From a virus, in IMG/VR virus record IMGVR_UViG_3300047550_004649, positions 1 to 49,559 of that record: a stretch of DNA of 49,559 nt. One strand, given 5' to 3'. Within the stretch, counting starts at the first letter, position 1. Every line of letters begins with the position of its first letter. Below the pieces are notes generated by a model, which was not told the DNA's origin, searched no databases, and saw nothing but the letters and a program-made list of their open reading frames with translations. The position numbers were made by a program, and so were the translations under genes. Below are positions 1-46,648 of this stretch, piece by piece.

Positions 1-437
1 ACATTTTTTAAGTCTGGTTTTTCATTATATAGTTTTCTTATCTCTCTTATCTGCTCATCATTTATTTTTCTACTAAAAACTCTACCTTTTCTAGAGTTGC
101 TCATTTTTTCTATGGTTTCTTCAGAGAAGCAATTTTTAATTCCTTTATTCCAAGGAACAGTACCTTTTTTTACTCCTCCAATTCCTTTTCGTTCATAATT
201 ATCAAATCCTTCTCCACCAGTAGATTTATTCCAACCATTCTTAAAAGTATCAAATTTTTCTATGTAAAAAATTTCTACCTCTTTTGCTTTTTCTGGAATA
301 TCTATCTGCTCATTTATTTCAAAAATATGTGGTGGTTTATTTCTTTTATGCTCTCTTTTTCTAGCATCTAAATTTTGAGTTTGTCCTACATATTTAATAT
401 TTCCATTCAAGTCCTTAAGGAAGTAAATATAATACAT
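1..437 (-). CDS. GIY-YIG homing endonuclease, C-terminus cut by window edge
   Basis: Reading leftward from the ATG at 437 the frame stays open to base 1 (145 codons), so the 3' end is outside the window. The N-terminus reads YYIYFLKD then KYVGQTQNLDARKREH, the two halves of a GIY-YIG nuclease core (YIY, YVG, catalytic-type Arg). Residues ~95-125 (VPWNKGI, FSEETIEKMSNSRKG) look like a NUMOD3 DNA-binding repeat. The tail INDEQIREIRKLYNEKP resembles a helix-turn-helix specificity module. It lies directly downstream of the broken terminase gene that ends in an intein N-half, where a homing endonuclease would drive spread of the split intein. A TATAAATA box lies 10 nt before the ATG. The family call is firm; the role in intein homing is inferred from position. 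Confidence 0.9.
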   Translation of the reverse strand, partial: MYYIYFLKDLNGNIKYVGQTQNLDARKREHKRNKPPHIFEINEQIDIPEKAKEVEIFYIEKFDTFKNGWNKSTGGEGFDNYERKGIGGVKKGTVPWNKGIKNCFSEETIEKMSNSRKGRVFSRKINDEQIREIRKLYNEKPDLKN

Positions 438-446
438 TTTTCTAAT

Positions 447-454
447 TATTTATA
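447..454 (-). promoter_or_regulatory. T4-type late promoter box TATAAATA before GIY-YIG gene
   Basis: The minus strand reads TATAAATA, the T4 late promoter consensus, between the terminase-fragment stop (466) and the endonuclease ATG (437). The 10-nt spacing to the ATG would leave a very short leader, so it may be weak or fortuitous. Confidence 0.45.
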
Positions 455-465
455 ATCCAAAAAAC

Positions 466-1347
466 TCACAATCGTTGATATAAATCTTCCATAGAAATTT
501 TTTGGGGAATACCATTCTCATCCAATATTTCTATCATGGTATCTCCACTTAAGCACTCAAACTCAACTTTGAACTGTTGTTCGGATGTGTTTGCGATTGT
601 CTGCTCCTTCCAGGCAGCGTCTCTACCAGGCACTTCAGACCAATGGACATCTGTTGGCACATATTCATTCTTGCCCCTCTCAGCATCATGCCACATGCGG
701 TAGAAGTGATTCATACCGCGTGGTGTAGAAACTATGATGACCTTTGTGCTCTGTCCAGAAGAAATAGTAGGATAAACAGAGGCAAAGAAGTCATCAGCAA
801 TGTGATTCGGGATGAAAGCGAACTCGTCAAGAAAGATGACATTATAGGATCCGCCTCGGACAGCAGATGACGAAGTAGAGTTAGATGAAATTTTGGAGCC
901 ATTTTCTAGTTCCAGAGATCCTTTGTTCCACGATATAATTCCCTGTTGCATCCACTTGGGTAGATTCTCATAAGCAAGTTGTAATCTCCCAAGCAAATCC
1001 CTTGCAGTAGATGCTTTGTTCGCTAGGATGGCAATATTAACATTATCATTAAAGACGGCATAGTGGAGCAGGTAGGATACGCAGGTAGTGCTTTTTCCCG
1101 TCTGACGGGGCATCTTACAGATATTAAATCTGTTCTCGTGGAAGTTCTTTACAAGTTTCTCTTGAAATGGATACATCTCAAAAGGAACCAGACCATGATC
1201 CAAAGAAACAATCTTAATATAATTCTTTGCGAAATATACAGGATCCTCTTTACACTTTAAGAACTCAATAATTTGTTCTTCCGTAAATTGAATTTGTGTA
1301 TTTGCTTTCTTAAGGTTTGGATTTCCCAAATATACATTATCTGCCAT
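466..1347 (-). CDS. 17: Large terminase (gp17) N-terminal ATPase half fused to an intein N-fragment
   Basis: Residues 1-264 are the ATPase half of the T4 gp17-type packaging motor. Visible are Walker A RQTGKST (81-87), Walker B IFLDEF (171-176) and the coupling motif STPRGM (207-212). The T4 protein continues FEC-EFLG into its nuclease domain. Here the frame instead changes after EFE (264) into Cys265 and 28 more residues, C-LSGDTMIEI to EDLYQRL, then stops. That tail is an intein N-terminal splicing block (see separate entry). The RNase H-like nuclease domain is absent from the window and should be encoded left of base 1. An AGAGG ribosome site precedes the ATG. It follows gp16 and three other virion genes, the T4 order. 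Recognition of the terminase is certain; splicing is inferred. Confidence 0.95.
   Translation of the reverse strand: MADNVYLGNPNLKKANTQIQFTEEQIIEFLKCKEDPVYFAKNYIKIVSLDHGLVPFEMYPFQEKLVKNFHENRFNICKMPRQTGKSTTCVSYLLHYAVFNDNVNIAILANKASTARDLLGRLQLAYENLPKWMQQGIISWNKGSLELENGSKISSNSTSSSAVRGGSYNVIFLDEFAFIPNHIADDFFASVYPTISSGQSTKVIIVSTPRGMNHFYRMWHDAERGKNEYVPTDVHWSEVPGRDAAWKEQTIANTSEQQFKVEFECLSGDTMIEILDENGIPQKISMEDLYQRL
469..555 (-). other. Split-intein N-fragment (IntN), 29 residues, AceL-TerL-like
   Basis: Residues 265-293 of the terminase fragment. Cys265 is the expected nucleophile of intein block A. The pattern C-x-x-GDTM-hydrophobic-E is typical of block A. The ending EDLYQRL closely resembles the end of the 25-residue N-fragment of the AceL-TerL intein known from an Antarctic lake phage metagenome (recalled, not searched). 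The insertion falls between Glu264 and what is a conserved Cys in T4-like terminases (FEC motif), so the C-extein would begin with the Cys needed for splicing. Most split inteins break near residue 100; this one breaks right after block A. Confidence 0.85.
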
Positions 1348-1354
1348 AAAAAAA

Positions 1355-2629
1355 TTACCTCTGTTCCAACCAGTTCACAATTGCAAGTGCTGACTTGTTA
1401 GCATTAGGTGAGGCACATACGAGAGTGTAAATATCACTAATTGTTCCAATACCACTTCTACCAACTTGTAGTTGTGCTTTATCATCAATGACTACCTGAC
1501 TTCCACCACCACCAACAACAAATCCACTTAAAAGAACTCTTCCACCAGTAAAAGAAGTTGCAGTGGTATCATATTGAGTAATTGCATCTGGATTTGCGTG
1601 GTCTGTAAATGCTGCACCAACTAGAGTTGGGTTCTCAACTAATCTCCAGAAGATGTTAGTGTTATCATTAGTAGATACTTGAAGTGACCTTGGAATTACA
1701 ACACCACTCAACATATTTGATTTAAGACGAATACTAAGAACTGGATAATAAGTATTCGCAACAGACATCGTAGTTCCACTAAGGGCATTACCCTGACTGA
1801 CGAGAGTTCCAAGTTTTTCTGGTTCTCCTTCTTGAATAAGAGAATTAGAACCTTGATATAAGTGATGAGTTCCTGCAACACCAGTTACATTTTCAATTTC
1901 GCAACGAATTGGTAGGAATGGAGTAGAACACCAAACATATGGATTGGTATTTGAGTTATCAAATGTATGACTATGAATTGTTTCATTCTTCATTAACCAA
2001 TTGAACTGAACGATACCTGCACCATACCATTCGTAGTTAATCGAAATCATCTGCTGTTTTGTTGGATCTGCAATTACTCCAGTCCAACCATTTCCATCAA
2101 ACTTTTCACCATTCCAGTTCTCTCTGGTTACTCTAGTTTCTGTGGTAATTCCAGATGTGCTACTGCGAATGACATAAGAATATGTTCCACCATTGTCCTC
2201 AAAGTATGCACCGTTATATTCATCAAACAATCCAAATCTTCTGAGAATGCCTACCTTCGGTGTTTCTAAACGAATAGAAAATGCAAGAGTTGCACTTCTA
2301 CCAGGAATGTATCTCATTACAGTCCTAGTTTGACGAATGACTTTACTCCCTGCAGTAGATCCAACTTGCATCACTACATTACTGGATGATGCGTTGTGAT
2401 ATGCAGTTCCAACTCCAACTATTCTTTCATCCCATACATCACTCTCTTTTCCGTACTGGAAGGTGTTAAAGAATACTGTTTGGAACGGGGCAACTTTGAG
2501 TCTGTTGTTATTAGAAAACTGGGGTCTCCAGTCCGTCTGGTTTCCCCAGTGATCTGCGATATTAAAAACCTCAAAGAGACTTCTCTCTTGATTTAAGAAA
2601 TCTTGCTCATTCTTATTCCATTGTGCCAT
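1355..2629 (-). CDS. Putative virion structural protein (424 aa)
   Basis: I do not recognise a named family. The protein is rich in Ser, Thr, Gly and Asn with alternating hydrophobic stretches, a beta-rich composition typical of virion surface or fibre proteins. It lacks signal peptide and membrane segments. Near the C-terminus is a flexible run of Gly (VVGGGGS) followed by a compact end containing IYTLVCASPNANKSALAIVN. It sits between the small head-associated genes and the terminase, 8 nt upstream of the terminase start, a position occupied by structural hypotheticals in T4-like cyanophages. A decoration or tail-associated protein is plausible; no enzymatic motif is visible. Confidence 0.6.
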   Translation of the reverse strand: MAQWNKNEQDFLNQERSLFEVFNIADHWGNQTDWRPQFSNNNRLKVAPFQTVFFNTFQYGKESDVWDERIVGVGTAYHNASSSNVVMQVGSTAGSKVIRQTRTVMRYIPGRSATLAFSIRLETPKVGILRRFGLFDEYNGAYFEDNGGTYSYVIRSSTSGITTETRVTRENWNGEKFDGNGWTGVIADPTKQQMISINYEWYGAGIVQFNWLMKNETIHSHTFDNSNTNPYVWCSTPFLPIRCEIENVTGVAGTHHLYQGSNSLIQEGEPEKLGTLVSQGNALSGTTMSVANTYYPVLSIRLKSNMLSGVVIPRSLQVSTNDNTNIFWRLVENPTLVGAAFTDHANPDAITQYDTTATSFTGGRVLLSGFVVGGGGSQVVIDDKAQLQVGRSGIGTISDIYTLVCASPNANKSALAIVNWLEQR

Positions 2630-2632
2630 GAA

Positions 2633-2947
2633 TCAATCACTCCATGTTAAACTTTCTGGTCTGTATCTTTGTGCGTTTTTGATTTTTAATGAATTAGAAG
2701 ATGTTGGATAAATGTTATGAACGATTGCTCCAGGATATTCTCCCTGAAGTTGTTCTGCAAGTGCATTTTTATCTAGCATTTTACCTTCTACTTCTAAACG
2801 ATATAATTTACCTTGCCAAACTACATCGGCAAGAAAGGATTCGGTCGTTTGCTCTGGTTCTTGGGTAGGAGAATTCATATAAAGATTCCCATTGAAATCT
2901 CCAGCAATATTAATAGATTCTGATATAAATTGTTGAAAGGATTTCAT
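2633..2947 (-). CDS. Small protein with T4-type capsid-targeting N-terminus (104 aa)
   Basis: The N-terminus MKSFQQFISES matches the pattern of the T4 capsid targeting sequence (internal protein III begins MKTYQEFIAEA), which sends proteins into the prohead and is cut off by the gp21 protease. The rest (residues ~38-104, VVWQGKLYRLEVEGKML...) is a small alpha/beta domain I do not recognise, ending ESLTWSD. The stop lies 3 nt before the next start. Two other proteins near 47.3-48.9 kb share the same N-terminal motif. Head packaging of this protein is inferred from the motif alone. Confidence 0.65.
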   Translation of the reverse strand: MKSFQQFISESINIAGDFNGNLYMNSPTQEPEQTTESFLADVVWQGKLYRLEVEGKMLDKNALAEQLQGEYPGAIVHNIYPTSSNSLKIKNAQRYRPESLTWSD

Positions 2948-2948
2948 C

Positions 2949-4628
2949 TTAGTTACAGTTCCAACGACGAAGTGCTTTGTTAATTCTTGAATCTGGATCT
3001 CTTGCGGTTTCTGCAGAAGTAAGTTTTGATTTCATTCCGGACATACGACGACAAAAAGATGCACGACGCTTTGCTCTTTTACCTTTTGGACTCTTTTCAG
3101 TTACTGCAGTCTGAAGTTTAGAACCTGGATTTTCACGACGATATGCTTTTACTGCAGCAGGACTTAATCCATCAGTTTTATCTTTGCGATTTACTGATTG
3201 CCAATCTTCCGATAATCCAAAATCTGCTCTCCAATTAGAGAACTCTTCCGCCTTAACACAGTTTGGATATCTCTTTCCAAACATCGTCTTCATTCCTTTT
3301 TTCTTATAACCAGGCCAGCACTTCTCATTAATCTGATCATATTTCTCATCAACATCTTGAAGTTTTCCTGCTTGTTTAAGAGCAATAATCCTTTGAACTG
3401 GAGTCATTTTATCCTTTCTACTCATGATTTTTTTCACTGCAATATCAAACGGTTTTTTGTCTGACATTGTTCCAGTATCAGAAACTTGCTCTTTCATCTC
3501 ACCACTATCAACATAATCTGCAGCTGCATCAATATAATCTGCTGCTTTAGTAATTTTTGACTGAACCCATGCTTCAATATTACCTTCACCTTTCATTTTA
3601 TTTCTTAATCTTTTTGCAGCTGCAATGATTGTTGAAAGTTCCGAACGTGCCATTGAATACTCATGATCATATGATTCTGGGAAATTACCAGGATGAACAG
3701 TTGCAATATTATATTTCAATTGATTTGTGGTTAAAGCAGAGGGTCTAGAAAACATATCCCAATATTTTCCACCATACTTACACTCATTTCTAGTTTCATC
3801 TTTTTGACACTTTGGACAATATCTAACCATTTCCATTGCTTCAGACTTGGTTCCCCAATTTGCAGCGCCAACTTTACGACACTTGACTAGTGCTCCAGAT
3901 GCATATGCACTTGGCCAAACGCTATATCTTGATCTTACCTTATGGTAACAAGCATCTTTAGTTCCACTACCTTTACCTGATTTATCTTTAACTTCTTGTA
4001 AATCCATTTCTTCCTTCATTTTTTTCTTTGGATCTGTTGAGACATAAGTTGGTTTTGCCGCACCTGATTTTTGTTGCTGTCCAGGATCTGCTGCTTTTTT
4101 TCTTCTTGCTGCTGATAATCTTTCTGCTTTAGACATGCTTGCTCTTTTTGCTGATGAGACACATTTTGGTGTTCCTTCACCAGGTTCATCGCTTGCACAA
4201 GTTCCACCAGTTACAACATTAACCCAACCAGATTTACCATCTTTTGATTTAGATTTTCCAAACCAATCACGAAGACCTTCTTCATTCATTTTTACATCTT
4301 TGAACTTCTTATGTTCTTTTTTTGCGGATGCTTCCATTTTTTTAAGACGAGTATAATAATCTGGAATTTCATCTAAATGTTGAAGAGCAATCTCCATTGC
4401 CAATTCATGGTCTTTGGTGTGCTCATGCTCAATTGGTTCTCCCATATCAAGTTGCTTTTGAATGAAAGAAACATCAAGACGATGCTTTTTTGCAATCTGT
4501 GCAACCGTTTTAAATGATTTTAATTGTTCTTTCAATTTTTTCTTTCTACCTTGACAGTGAGCTCTTTGCGAAAATCCTTTTGGATTGTCACAATCAATTG
4601 ATCTTTTATATTTGTCAGACCAACTCAT
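2949..4628 (-). CDS. Multi-module basic, Cys-containing phage protein (DUF5661/DUF5872-like modules, 559 aa)
   Basis: A mosaic of short modules seen separately in other phages. Residues 1-35 hold a Cys/Lys motif (SIDCDNPKGFSQRAHCQGRK). Residues ~40-110 resemble DUF5661 (EHEHTKDHELAMEIA...DYYTRLKKMEA). Residues ~117-200 are a DUF5872-like segment (LRDWFGKSK, GTPKCVSS, KAERLSAARRKK), and a second related segment follows at ~213-265 (GTKDACYHKV, YASGALVKCRK). A CPKC/CKYGG stretch may bind metal. The end has CWPGYKKKGMKTMFGKRYPNC and a basic RASFCRRMSGMKSK tail ending in NC. The strong positive charge suggests nucleic-acid contact, perhaps as a head-packaged protein. The domain names are from memory; function is unknown. 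Confidence 0.65.
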   Translation of the reverse strand: MSWSDKYKRSIDCDNPKGFSQRAHCQGRKKKLKEQLKSFKTVAQIAKKHRLDVSFIQKQLDMGEPIEHEHTKDHELAMEIALQHLDEIPDYYTRLKKMEASAKKEHKKFKDVKMNEEGLRDWFGKSKSKDGKSGWVNVVTGGTCASDEPGEGTPKCVSSAKRASMSKAERLSAARRKKAADPGQQQKSGAAKPTYVSTDPKKKMKEEMDLQEVKDKSGKGSGTKDACYHKVRSRYSVWPSAYASGALVKCRKVGAANWGTKSEAMEMVRYCPKCQKDETRNECKYGGKYWDMFSRPSALTTNQLKYNIATVHPGNFPESYDHEYSMARSELSTIIAAAKRLRNKMKGEGNIEAWVQSKITKAADYIDAAADYVDSGEMKEQVSDTGTMSDKKPFDIAVKKIMSRKDKMTPVQRIIALKQAGKLQDVDEKYDQINEKCWPGYKKKGMKTMFGKRYPNCVKAEEFSNWRADFGLSEDWQSVNRKDKTDGLSPAAVKAYRRENPGSKLQTAVTEKSPKGKRAKRRASFCRRMSGMKSKLTSAETARDPDSRINKALRRWNCN

Positions 4629-4640
4629 TAGAAATAAGAA

Positions 4641-5063
4641 TTACTCTTTATTATTTAGAAAACCTTGTTTGAGTAGTTTTGATAGTTCTGATGTCGATCC
4701 AACAAAGACTGCATTATTAGTTACATTATTAGTTGTTTTTGTAGATTCTTCTTCAACATCTTTGAGTTTTTTCTGTAAATCAATTAATTTATCAGTTACA
4801 TCTCCAACTGATTTTATTAATTGTCCGGCAACTTCATATGCTCTTGGAGATCCACCTTCACCGGCAAGTTCCATAATTCCATTAATCGCTTCCTGTCCTT
4901 TTTCAATTAATGAATATAAGTTTGCACGAGTATACTCATAATCTTTTTGAATATCATCCGATTTTATGGGTGTTATATTCAATTCTTCTTTTATTTTTTC
5001 TACTTCAACAATATCACTTTGTATATTGAGGGCAGAATCTAATCCTTCATACTTATTTGTCAT
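4641..5063 (-). CDS. 16: Small terminase subunit (gp16)
   Basis: A 140-residue, mostly helical protein. The central block DYEYTRANLYSLIEKGQEAINGIMELA followed by PRAYEVAGQLIKSVGDVTDKLIDLQKKLK is the conserved helical core of T4 gp16, the DNA-recognising partner of the packaging ATPase gp17. The acidic N-terminus and the short C-terminal segment ending FLNNKE are also typical. It directly follows gp15, as in T4. Between it and gp17 are three extra genes, a spacing larger than in T4. Motif quoted in two pieces; the family assignment is confident. Confidence 0.92.
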   Translation of the reverse strand: MTNKYEGLDSALNIQSDIVEVEKIKEELNITPIKSDDIQKDYEYTRANLYSLIEKGQEAINGIMELAGEGGSPRAYEVAGQLIKSVGDVTDKLIDLQKKLKDVEEESTKTTNNVTNNAVFVGSTSELSKLLKQGFLNNKE

Positions 5064-5069
5064 GATATA

Positions 5070-5867
5070 TCAAAGATCTGCTTGCTGTGTTGGACTATAA
5101 GTTTTGGAATCACTAAAAGATTGCCAAACTTCATTAAATCCAAAGTTATCCTCAGGATCTGCATCAATTGGGTCTGGAGTAAGAGTATATCTCATTTCCC
5201 TCTTTGCTGTTGAAGTATCTGTAGAATTATAATAATCAACTTGCACTTTACGAATAAGTCCATCCGTAGAATCTGCAATAGGTCCGAATAGATAAGTTTT
5301 TGCAGTAAAATTAAGAGTATAAATTAAAACTCTTCTGGTGGAAAAATCTCCTTCATAATCATCAGTGAAAGATACACTATCTAGTACAATAGGTATGTCT
5401 CTTTTTTCCCCAATTGCATCTACTAAATCTACAGTTAAATTGAATGATGGTTGAAAATACGGAAGTATCTGCTCTACCACTTGTAAAGCATCGTCTTGCA
5501 ACTTGGACATTATATTTAACTGAAATCCCAAATTATATGGAACTGGCATAAAAACTTTTTTTAAGTTATTGCCATCTATCGCTTTAAAAGTTTGTGTAAT
5601 ACCAGATTTTCTTGTAGAATCATATTGAATCGATGTCATTTCGAATGACATTCTAGGTAATGTCATTGCAATTGGTTTATTTAATTCTGGTTGTTGATTT
5701 ATACGCGCTAAAAACTTTTGTATTGGACCATAGGCAAGAGGAACTTTCATTTCACTGATACTATCACCGGAAGAGTCTTTATGCCTTATATAAATTTCAT
5801 TAAAAACTGTTCCAAAAGAAATAACAGTTTTTCTAATAATTTCGTGGTAATAGTATGTTCCTAGCAT
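5070..5867 (-). CDS. 15: Tail sheath stabilizer and completion protein (gp15)
   Basis: A 265-residue protein close to the T4 gp15 length (272). The N-terminus MLGTYYYHEIIRKTV is followed by the shared segments PLAYGPIQKFLARI, TLPRMSFEM and especially QVVEQILPYFQPSFNLTV, the best conserved gp15 stretch. The later ADSTDGLIRKVQVDYYN matches the gp15 GLIRTTYTDFH region. gp15 forms the hexameric ring that caps the contracted tail sheath and joins it to the neck. Its start overlaps the gp14 stop by one base, showing tight co-translation of the neck genes. Confidence 0.93.
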   Translation of the reverse strand: MLGTYYYHEIIRKTVISFGTVFNEIYIRHKDSSGDSISEMKVPLAYGPIQKFLARINQQPELNKPIAMTLPRMSFEMTSIQYDSTRKSGITQTFKAIDGNNLKKVFMPVPYNLGFQLNIMSKLQDDALQVVEQILPYFQPSFNLTVDLVDAIGEKRDIPIVLDSVSFTDDYEGDFSTRRVLIYTLNFTAKTYLFGPIADSTDGLIRKVQVDYYNSTDTSTAKREMRYTLTPDPIDADPEDNFGFNEVWQSFSDSKTYSPTQQADL

Positions 5868-35440: not shown

Positions 35441-36091
35441 TTATATATGAGTATTATGAGAGATTTTGTGCCACCTGGTATTTTCTGACAGTTTCTTCCT
35501 GTATTCACCGTCTCTCTCCCATGAATTCATATTTTCAAATCTTGTTGTCCACTTTAAATTATCTTTGCAATTGTTTTGTTTATTTCGATCTATATGATCT
35601 ATCTCAGTATAGTTATTTGGATTTGGTATAAAAGTTTCTGCAACTAATTGATGAACACTTCTCTTGATTTGTTTTAAAAATTTTCCTTTTTCATCATACA
35701 ATGAAATATTAACACATTGATATTGGTACTTTTTACTCTTTGACGATCCTCGATATGCCGGTTTTAAGTAAATTAATCCATATTCGTTGATTTCACCGTA
35801 AAAACCCGTTCTATCATATTTTCCTGGTTTTCTATAAACTTTACCATCTTCAGTAACATAGTAACCAGTATATTGTGTTTCTTTCATATTGTCTGGGATT
35901 TTTATTGGTGGATAATTATATTTCACTTTTTTTGATTTTTTTATAGGGACATTCCAATCTTCTCTTGGTTTTTTTATGTAATTCCATTTCCCATTTTTCT
36001 TGATAAACTGATATCCTTTCTTATTTGTTCTAATTGTTCCTTCTGGATATTCTTTCATTTTTTTATTTTTTATATAAAGGTATTCTATCAT
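35441..36091 (-). CDS. HNH homing endonuclease (216 aa)
   Basis: The C-terminal half carries the HNH signature: VHQLVAETFIPNPNNYTEIDHI (His-Asp pair), then DRNKQNNCKDNLKWTT (Asn) and ending in a short helix. The N-terminal part (EYPEGTIRTNKKGYQFIKKNGK, and YTGYYVTEDGKVYRK, a NUMOD4-like hairpin) probably sets DNA specificity. Such genes are free-standing mobile elements in T-even and cyanophage genomes. It lies at the border between the late, A+T-rich virion block and the G+C-richer small-gene region. The downstream neighbour ORFs look intact, so no gene is obviously split by it. ATGs at 36091 and 36058 are both possible starts. Confidence 0.88.
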   Translation of the reverse strand: MIEYLYIKNKKMKEYPEGTIRTNKKGYQFIKKNGKWNYIKKPREDWNVPIKKSKKVKYNYPPIKIPDNMKETQYTGYYVTEDGKVYRKPGKYDRTGFYGEINEYGLIYLKPAYRGSSKSKKYQYQCVNISLYDEKGKFLKQIKRSVHQLVAETFIPNPNNYTEIDHIDRNKQNNCKDNLKWTTRFENMNSWERDGEYRKKLSENTRWHKISHNTHI

Positions 36092-45703: not shown

Positions 45704-46648
45704 TTAATCAAGTGTCATACGGATCTGCTGAGCAATGCGTTTGATGACTGGTACACTGACTGAGTTTCCAACCTGCTTATACAATGTCCCATCAGAAATT
45801 GATGGTAGAACATAAGAATCGGGAAATCCTTGAAGACGAAGACATTCTCTTGGTGTAAGTTTACGAATTCCATGAGAATCTTTAATAATTGGAACATTAT
45901 GTCCTCCTGTTCCCATGTTTGCAGTGAGAGTTGGACAAACATTCTTTTTGTTTTCTCTCACATATTGCCTTCGCCATTGATAGATTTTTGAGGGATCAGT
46001 TACATCATTTTTAAGTTTATCATACAATGGTTTTCCATCGTAATAGTACTTAGAATCAACTTGTTCTGAGTCTAGAAGATCCGAAACTGTTTTTGTCAAT
46101 GGAATTGAGTTTGGAAAAGAAAAACGCATACATTGAGAAAAAGATTTAAATCCAACGATGTAAATTCTCTCACGATTTTGTGGTACATTACCATATTCCA
46201 TCGTATTCAAAACTTTAAATTTGATATGGTAATCCAGTTCAGAAAGAATATTTTGAATCACTTGAAATGTTTTTCCAGAATCATGAGAAACTAGATTTTT
46301 TACATTTTCAAGTAAAAATCCAGATGGTTGTTTTTGTTTTAAAATTTCCGCAATGTAAAAGAATAGATTGCCTCGATTCTTTTCATCATCAAATCCTTGT
46401 CGATGACCAGCGATTGAAAATGCCTGACAAGGAAATCCTCCAAGAAGAAAATCAAAGTCAGGCAATGAATTTGGATCAATTTCACGAAGATCTTGAATGT
46501 GAAGTTTAGAGGTTTTGAAATTTAAATCATAGGTGATTTTACACTGTGGTTCAAAGTCATTCGAAAACACAGACTCAAATCCAGCAGACTCAAATCCAAG
46601 ACGAATACCTCCAATTCCAGCAAACAGATCTATCGTGCGATTTACCAT
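45704..46648 (-). CDS. DNA (cytosine-5)-methyltransferase, probable GCNGC-type modification enzyme
   Basis: All key C5-MTase motifs are visible: I DLFAGIGGIRLGF (7-19, AdoMet), IV GGFPCQAFS with catalytic Cys74, VI LLENVKNL (Glu114), VIII QNRERIYIVGF (157-167), IX KLTPRECLRLQGFPD (263-277) and X KQVGNSVSVP. The target-recognition region (~170-260) contains YQWRRQYVRENKKNVCPTLT then ANMGTGGHNVP, which resembles that of GCNGC methyltransferases such as M.Bsp6I as I recall it. The ATG lies inside the last codons of the endonuclease gene (ATGGTAA overlap), so the two are translated together. With its partner it makes a type II restriction-modification system. Confidence 0.95.
   Translation of the reverse strand: MVNRTIDLFAGIGGIRLGFESAGFESVFSNDFEPQCKITYDLNFKTSKLHIQDLREIDPNSLPDFDFLLGGFPCQAFSIAGHRQGFDDEKNRGNLFFYIAEILKQKQPSGFLLENVKNLVSHDSGKTFQVIQNILSELDYHIKFKVLNTMEYGNVPQNRERIYIVGFKSFSQCMRFSFPNSIPLTKTVSDLLDSEQVDSKYYYDGKPLYDKLKNDVTDPSKIYQWRRQYVRENKKNVCPTLTANMGTGGHNVPIIKDSHGIRKLTPRECLRLQGFPDSYVLPSISDGTLYKQVGNSVSVPVIKRIAQQIRMTLD

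What the first reader, a model, noticed from the sequence alone, without database searches (positions are those of the whole stretch)
1..454. GIY-YIG homing endonuclease sits between the two terminase halves, with its own late box
Known fractured genes with split inteins often have a homing endonuclease between the halves; many are Vsr-like. Here it is a GIY-YIG/NUMOD3 enzyme, which is a different solution. The TATAAATA box in the gap suggests late expression, together with packaging genes.
Basis: partly seen in the sequence, partly recalled or inferred. Interest (0 to 1): 0.75.

Follow-up and report, generated by a model that had tools for sequence, protein, structure and literature searches.

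The report
Self-spreading cassette splitting phage packaging gene
In this marine phage the DNA-packaging motor gene is cut in two by a self-splicing split intein with a DNA-cutting 'homing' gene between the halves, and a copy of the enzyme's own target site next to its promoter suggests that it both spreads and restrains itself.

Summary
On the minus strand the record ends with a terminase (TerL/gp17) N-half carrying a 29-aa IntN (469-555), a gap with TATAAATA (447-454), and a GIY-YIG endonuclease gene (437..3) cut off by the record edge. The second terminase half is NOT in the window. Relatives supply it: in 86 contigs with this endonuclease it lies between TerL-IntN and IntC-TerL wherever the contig reaches (77 complete, 9 cut by an edge, 0 exceptions). 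The intein is an AceL/GOS-TerL-type atypical split intein, and 'fractured genes' are a known arrangement. Cleavage and repression are inferred.

The parts
556..1347 (-). TerL (gp17) N-extein, 264 codons, ending FKVEFE
   Evidence: PF03237 Terminase_6N 3e-20; phrog_5989 1.7e-66
466..555 (-). IntN of an atypical split intein (29 aa from Cys1, then TGA)
   Evidence: CatN of PDB 6DSL, E 1.5e-11; same junction as intein-free FKVEFE|CEFLGS alleles
456..470 (-). TGTGAGTTTTTTGGA: copy of the C-extein start (empty homing half-site), proposed operator; supplies the IntN stop codon out of frame
447..454 (-). TATAAATA, T4-type late promoter box
   Evidence: present in 45 of 46 module gaps
3..437 (-). GIY-YIG homing endonuclease, first 145 codons of about 189, cut off by the record edge
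   Evidence: predicted fold of the L002 relative resembles the I-TevI catalytic domain

Best explanation
A mobile 'fractured-gene' cassette in the terminase of a T4-like, probably cyanophage-related, phage. Shown by sequence comparison: a split intein (IntN 29 aa, IntC about 103 aa) interrupts TerL at FKVEFE|CEFLGS, and a separate GIY-YIG endonuclease gene with its own late-type box lies between the intein halves. Inferred: the two TerL half-proteins are joined by trans-splicing; the endonuclease cuts intein-free terL alleles close to the insertion site in mixed infections, and repair copies the IntN-endonuclease-IntC unit of about 0.99 kb. The C-terminal half of the enzyme would bind the C-extein half-site TGTGARTTYYTDGG. 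The 15-nt copy of this half-site, one base upstream of the endonuclease's late box, would act as an operator by which the enzyme represses its own gene without cutting it, as known for I-TevI. After homing the endonuclease gene is lost, leaving a split intein or, by fusion, a contiguous one.
For: Position: 86 contigs, 77 with both neighbours, 0 contradicting. Intein identity: 6DSL CatN and CatC. Catalytic residues Y5, Y16, G18, R26, H30, E55, N70 invariant in 16 aligned enzymes (the assignment to I-TevI residues is recalled). Mobility: on a quick TerL tree of 120 rows (76 intein-free, 44 with intein) 20 changes of state, at least 17 forced by well-supported branches; L153 against L146/L147/L148/L152: TerL flanks 76-79% but IntN, endonuclease and IntC 99-100% nt, identity running from 14 nt before the left junction to 5 nt after the right one against L148. 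Operator: first 15 nt of the own C-extein match the gap at 10-14 of 15 in 44 of 44 modules, while 3 of 3663 windows elsewhere in the same modules reach 11; motif 90% identical over 543 divergent pairs whose four-fold sites are 52% identical; kept with an HNH nuclease domain in L246; 94 of 95 examined hits of motif plus box in viral contigs lie in this cassette. Life cycle: L121 internal stop; endonuclease-less split loci L183, L190, L217, L248, L249, L253, L254 and re-fused L250, L251. Precedent: I-TevI operator, 15 of 20 nt identical to its homing site, overlaps its late promoter (PMC2988022, passages read).
Against: No binding, cutting or splicing data. The window holds neither IntC nor the C-terminal half of the enzyme. 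The motif does not track the own C-extein better than others' (11.80 against 11.74 matches, permutation p 0.28), and in L358 the own C-extein has diverged while the motif has not. L083 lacks the exact box although its enzyme is 98% identical to that of L072. L354 and L357 carry only weaker copies. The half-site copy could be a scar of the insertion. L217 keeps a motif-like stretch after losing the enzyme.
Confidence: 0.75

Rival explanations
1. Same homing cassette, but the half-site copy in the gap is only a scar of how the endonuclease gene entered the intein, without regulatory function.
For: The copy begins at the first base of the +1 Cys codon; in L299 and L356 it is read in frame as the end of IntN, ECEFLGL/ECEFIGL, as a leftover would be.
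Against: It stays 90% identical where four-fold sites are down to 52% and survives the swap of the nuclease domain.
Confidence: 0.25
2. The late box serves mainly to transcribe IntC-TerL-C, so that the fractured packaging gene stays expressed late; the endonuclease rides along.
For: The box lies 9 nt from the endonuclease ATG in 37 of 46 modules, leaving hardly a leader, and 40 of 46 have no Shine-Dalgarno-like site before the endonuclease, against 38 of 45 with one before IntC.
Against: The box is gone in 9 of 9 endonuclease-less loci examined that still carry IntC-TerL-C.
Confidence: 0.15
3. The endonuclease is a dead or domesticated passenger and the split TerL is inherited vertically.
For: L121 has an internal stop and several loci have lost the gene.
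Against: Median dN/dS 0.15 over 788 non-independent pairs; scattered distribution on the TerL tree; a nearly identical module in divergent TerL genes.
Confidence: 0.05

Closest known systems
Fractured genes with split inteins and an intervening endonuclease (Dassa et al. 2009, NAR gkp095; paper not held, content recalled)
   Same: Enzyme gene broken by a split intein, free-standing endonuclease gene in between, gene-control elements reported near some endonucleases (recalled)
   Different: Terminase instead of DNA synthesis and repair enzymes (recalled); GIY-YIG or HNH instead of the Vsr-like family; homing-site copy at the late box
Atypical TerL split inteins AceL-TerL, GOS-TerL, consensus Cat (PDB 6DSL)
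   Same: Short IntN and long IntC in TerL; window IntN and L072 IntC match 6DSL chains; L248 IntN has 25 aa as reported for AceL-TerL (letter identity is recalled)
   Different: Those are used as tools without their loci; here the endonuclease, promoter and site copy are described, and the AceL-type loci look like endonuclease-loss relics
I-TevI of the T4 td intron
   Same: GIY-YIG enzyme, late promoter, homing-site-like operator at the promoter (PMC2988022)
   Different: Group I intron instead of split intein; its repression is measured, ours is inferred
Vibrio phage VP-1 TerL (MH363700)
   Same: Same TerL site; a related GIY-YIG enzyme (BLASTP E 3e-10; hhalign 93.7%) between IntN and IntC
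   Different: Endonuclease fused in frame to IntN, with IntC in an overlapping frame and no separate promoter seen

Membership tests
Fractured gene with split intein and endonuclease | Conserved gene broken in two by a split intein | tested here: met
   N-half in the window; C-half only in relatives
Fractured gene with split intein and endonuclease | Free-standing endonuclease ORF between the halves | tested here: met
   77 of 86 contigs complete, 9 cut by an edge, 0 contradicting
AceL/GOS-TerL atypical split intein | Sequence kinship and short IntN with long IntC | tested here: met
   6DSL CatN 1.5e-11 (window IntN), CatC 3.3e-51 (L072 IntC); 29 and 103 aa
AceL/GOS-TerL atypical split intein | Trans-splicing activity | not testable with these tools
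   needs the bench
GIY-YIG homing endonuclease | GIY-YIG domain with catalytic residues | tested here: met
   Pfam 5e-9; invariant residues; predicted fold nearest I-TevI and UvrC catalytic domains, Foldseek probability 1.00 but E about 0.03
GIY-YIG homing endonuclease | NUMOD3 DNA-binding motif | tested here: inconclusive
   21.4 bits in the window fragment, 19.0 in the full-length L002, cut-off 20.4
GIY-YIG homing endonuclease | Site-specific cleavage of intein-free alleles | not testable with these tools
   only indirect: distribution and exchange limits
I-TevI-type self-repressed endonuclease | Homing-site-like sequence at the late promoter | tested here: met
I-TevI-type self-repressed endonuclease | Enzyme binds that sequence and represses | not testable with these tools
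   needs binding and reporter assays

The most novel reading that the evidence does not exclude
A split-intein homing element that carries its own regulatory circuit: the endonuclease recognises the TerL half-site TGTGARTTYYTDGG through a shared C-terminal domain and represses itself through a copy of that half-site at its late promoter; the circuit outlives replacement of GIY-YIG by HNH, and loss of the endonuclease yields split relics (AceL-TerL among them) or a reversion from split to contiguous intein.
Probability: 0.5. Interest if true: 0.75.

Novelty: new variant of a known kind. Interest (0 to 1): 0.62.

Why it matters
If true, it gives a natural series of states for how split inteins arise and decay, including a reversal from split to contiguous, explains where a laboratory split intein came from, and extends endonuclease self-repression from introns to split inteins with a site that can be tested directly by binding and cleavage assays.

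Tried and rejected
Rejected: recoding or readthrough joining IntN to the endonuclease, because the gap length varies between modules. Gene conversion keeping the motif equal to the own C-extein: no excess match to the own copy (p 0.28). A copy spanning the whole junction: the N-extein side is convincing in few loci, so only the C-extein half is claimed. A link of the L357 copy with its own odd C-extein: not discriminating.

Led nowhere: no relative of the endonuclease in 50,697 phage records; genome contigs gave no relative (two degenerate patterns, one of two scans used); no PDB sequence match for the endonuclease; the structure model is weak in the linker (mean pLDDT 72.8, pTM 0.41).

Literature: in searches I saw no paper placing an endonuclease between TerL intein halves. 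Only the listings were read, plus passages of PMC10448857, PMC11766414, PMC2988022 and PMC7090010. The papers most likely to report it are not held, so absence from print is not shown.

The counts of 44 and 46 modules are of distinct sequences: 98 loci with both junctions were reduced to 47 distinct cores, 3 of them without the endonuclease, and the window and L002 were added for 46.

Full report
What is there. The window is a 49,559-base virus record. Reading the minus strand towards its left edge: TerL N-half (1347..466), a short gap, and an endonuclease frame (437..3) that runs off the record. TerL-N matches Terminase_6N (3e-20) and phrog_5989 (1.7e-66); the endonuclease frame matches GIY-YIG (5e-9) and phrog_314 (1.7e-16). 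Neighbouring genes match terminase small subunit, sheath stabiliser and head-closure families, and the best TerL matches among annotated phages include Synechococcus and Prochlorococcus phages, so the phage is T4-like and probably a cyanophage relative. The terminase C-half is not in the window.

The intein. Of the 80 TerL loci fetched, most read FKVEFE|CEFLGS without interruption; L002, L009 and L072 read E[FY]E|CLSGD and stop after 29 residues, as the window does. L072 has the whole module: TerL-N with IntN, 189-aa endonuclease, IntC of 103 aa ending SHN, then CEFLGS and the rest of TerL. IntC of L072 and IntN of the window match the two chains of the engineered consensus intein Cat, PDB 6DSL (E 3.3e-51 and 1.5e-11). 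A review describes AceL-TerL (25-aa IntN, Antarctic saline lake) and GOS-TerL as natural atypical split inteins and Cat as their consensus (PMC11766414, passages).

The endonuclease always sits there. With two endonuclease queries I obtained 86 contigs, the window's own record counted in; 77 have TerL-N before and IntC after it, 5 are cut downstream, 4 upstream, none contradicts. The predicted model of the L002 enzyme has a GIY-YIG domain, a disordered linker and a helical C-terminal domain; the nearest solved folds are the UvrC and I-TevI catalytic domains, with probability 1.00 but E only about 0.03.

It moves. On a quick TerL DNA tree of 120 rows, intein-bearing and intein-free alleles alternate: 20 changes, at least 17 forced (intein-free rows were sampled near the window, and a few rows have long branches). 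L153 and L146/L147/L148/L152 differ by 21-24% in the TerL flanks but are 99-100% identical in IntN, endonuclease and IntC; against L148 the identity starts 14 nt before the left junction and ends 5 nt after the right one. For the window itself, the endonuclease is 96% identical in DNA to that of L002, while the last 450 nt of the N-extein are 85% identical. Not all flanks behave so: L072 shares endonuclease, IntC and TerL-C with L084 (96-100%), but IntN only at 71% and TerL-N at 79%, which places another breakpoint near the gap.

The half-site copy. The gap begins TGTGAGTTTTTTGGA, then one base, then TATAAATA; the first bases also form the IntN stop codon. It resembles the C-extein start (Cys-Glu-Phe-Leu-Gly). 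The own C-extein matches at 10-14 of 15 in 44 of 44 modules; in 3663 comparison windows of the same modules 3 reach 11. Between modules whose endonucleases are under 80% identical (543 pairs, not independent) four-fold sites agree at 52% and the motif at 90%. Variable motif positions are 4, 6, 9, 10, 12 and 15; five of these are synonymous positions of the C-extein codons and one (4) is not. The motif does not follow the own C-extein more than others' (p 0.28), which speaks against gene conversion. In the window it is unique at up to two mismatches. A scan of 2.9 million viral contigs for motif plus box gave 98 stretches; of 95 examined, 94 lie in this TerL cassette and one (L289) does not (L299 was missed by the script's pattern and placed by eye; three of the 94, L271, L281 and L328, are cut by the contig edge upstream and are placed by the endonuclease alone, and four by the terminase side alone).

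Domain swap. L246 carries the same split TerL intein with motif and box, but its enzyme begins with an HNH_3 domain (E 4.7e-12) while residues 84-195 of the L173 enzyme are matched at 77%. L349/L350 and L354 are further HNH-type relatives (read by eye); L349 keeps a motif-like copy and the box, L354 only a weaker copy. That the C-terminal half binds DNA and the gap copy is inference.

I-TevI is the model: its operator, 15 of 20 nt identical to the homing site, overlaps its late promoter, is bound with equal affinity and is cut about 100-fold less well (PMC2988022, passages).

Decay and reversal. L121 has an internal stop. L190, L217, L183, L248/L249 and L253/L254 lack the endonuclease but remain split; L217, L183 and L248/L249 retain endonuclease 3'-end DNA. 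In L250 and L251 IntN runs in frame into IntC through a linker identical over 24 nt to the 3' end of the L246 endonuclease gene; L251 is open over 679 codons between stops. None of the nine endonuclease-less loci examined has the box upstream of IntC. The IntN of L248/L249/L261 has 25 residues, as reported for AceL-TerL, and by my recall is that sequence; if so, AceL-TerL is such a relic.

Expression. The box is present in 45 of 46 modules and lies 9 nt from the endonuclease ATG in 37, so a T4-like late start would leave almost no leader (inference). Shine-Dalgarno-like sequences are found before the endonuclease in 6 of 46 and before IntC in 38 of 45.

Judgement. The arrangement is a known kind (fractured genes, recalled; AceL-type TerL inteins). 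The gap copy at the promoter, its survival through a nuclease-domain swap, and the re-fused inteins are the parts I did not find described in the searches named in Tried and rejected; key papers were not held.

Noticed in passing
L243 (MH363700) 1837-5179: Vibrio phage VP-1 TerL has two inteins: one at the Walker A region and one at the homologous ...C site, the latter with a GIY-YIG enzyme fused to IntN and IntC in an overlapping frame.
   Followed up: partly
L244 (KU160494) 1102-3216: Vibrio phage vB_VmeM-32 TerL has a contiguous intein after the Walker B Asp-Glu, and its annotated ORF begins with what looks like the end of another intein.
   Followed up: no
L250 726-1037 and L251 1680-1991, with upstream linker: IntN and IntC re-fused in frame through endonuclease 3'-end DNA: apparent reversal from split to contiguous intein.
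   Followed up: partly
L299 near 3050; L356 near 2738: IntN ends in frame with the extein copy itself (ECEFLGL or ECEFIGL before the stop).
   Followed up: no
window 1-10 and end of L169: Two assemblies of apparently the same phage both end inside the endonuclease gene.
   Followed up: no
window 35441-36091: A second endonuclease gene, HNH type (phrog_59, 1.2e-22).
   Followed up: no
window 45704-46648: DNA methyltransferase gene (phrog_116, 7.2e-88).
   Followed up: no
L072 6793-6879: IntN is only 71% identical in DNA to that of L084 although IntC is essentially identical: a natural chimera of intein halves.
   Followed up: partly
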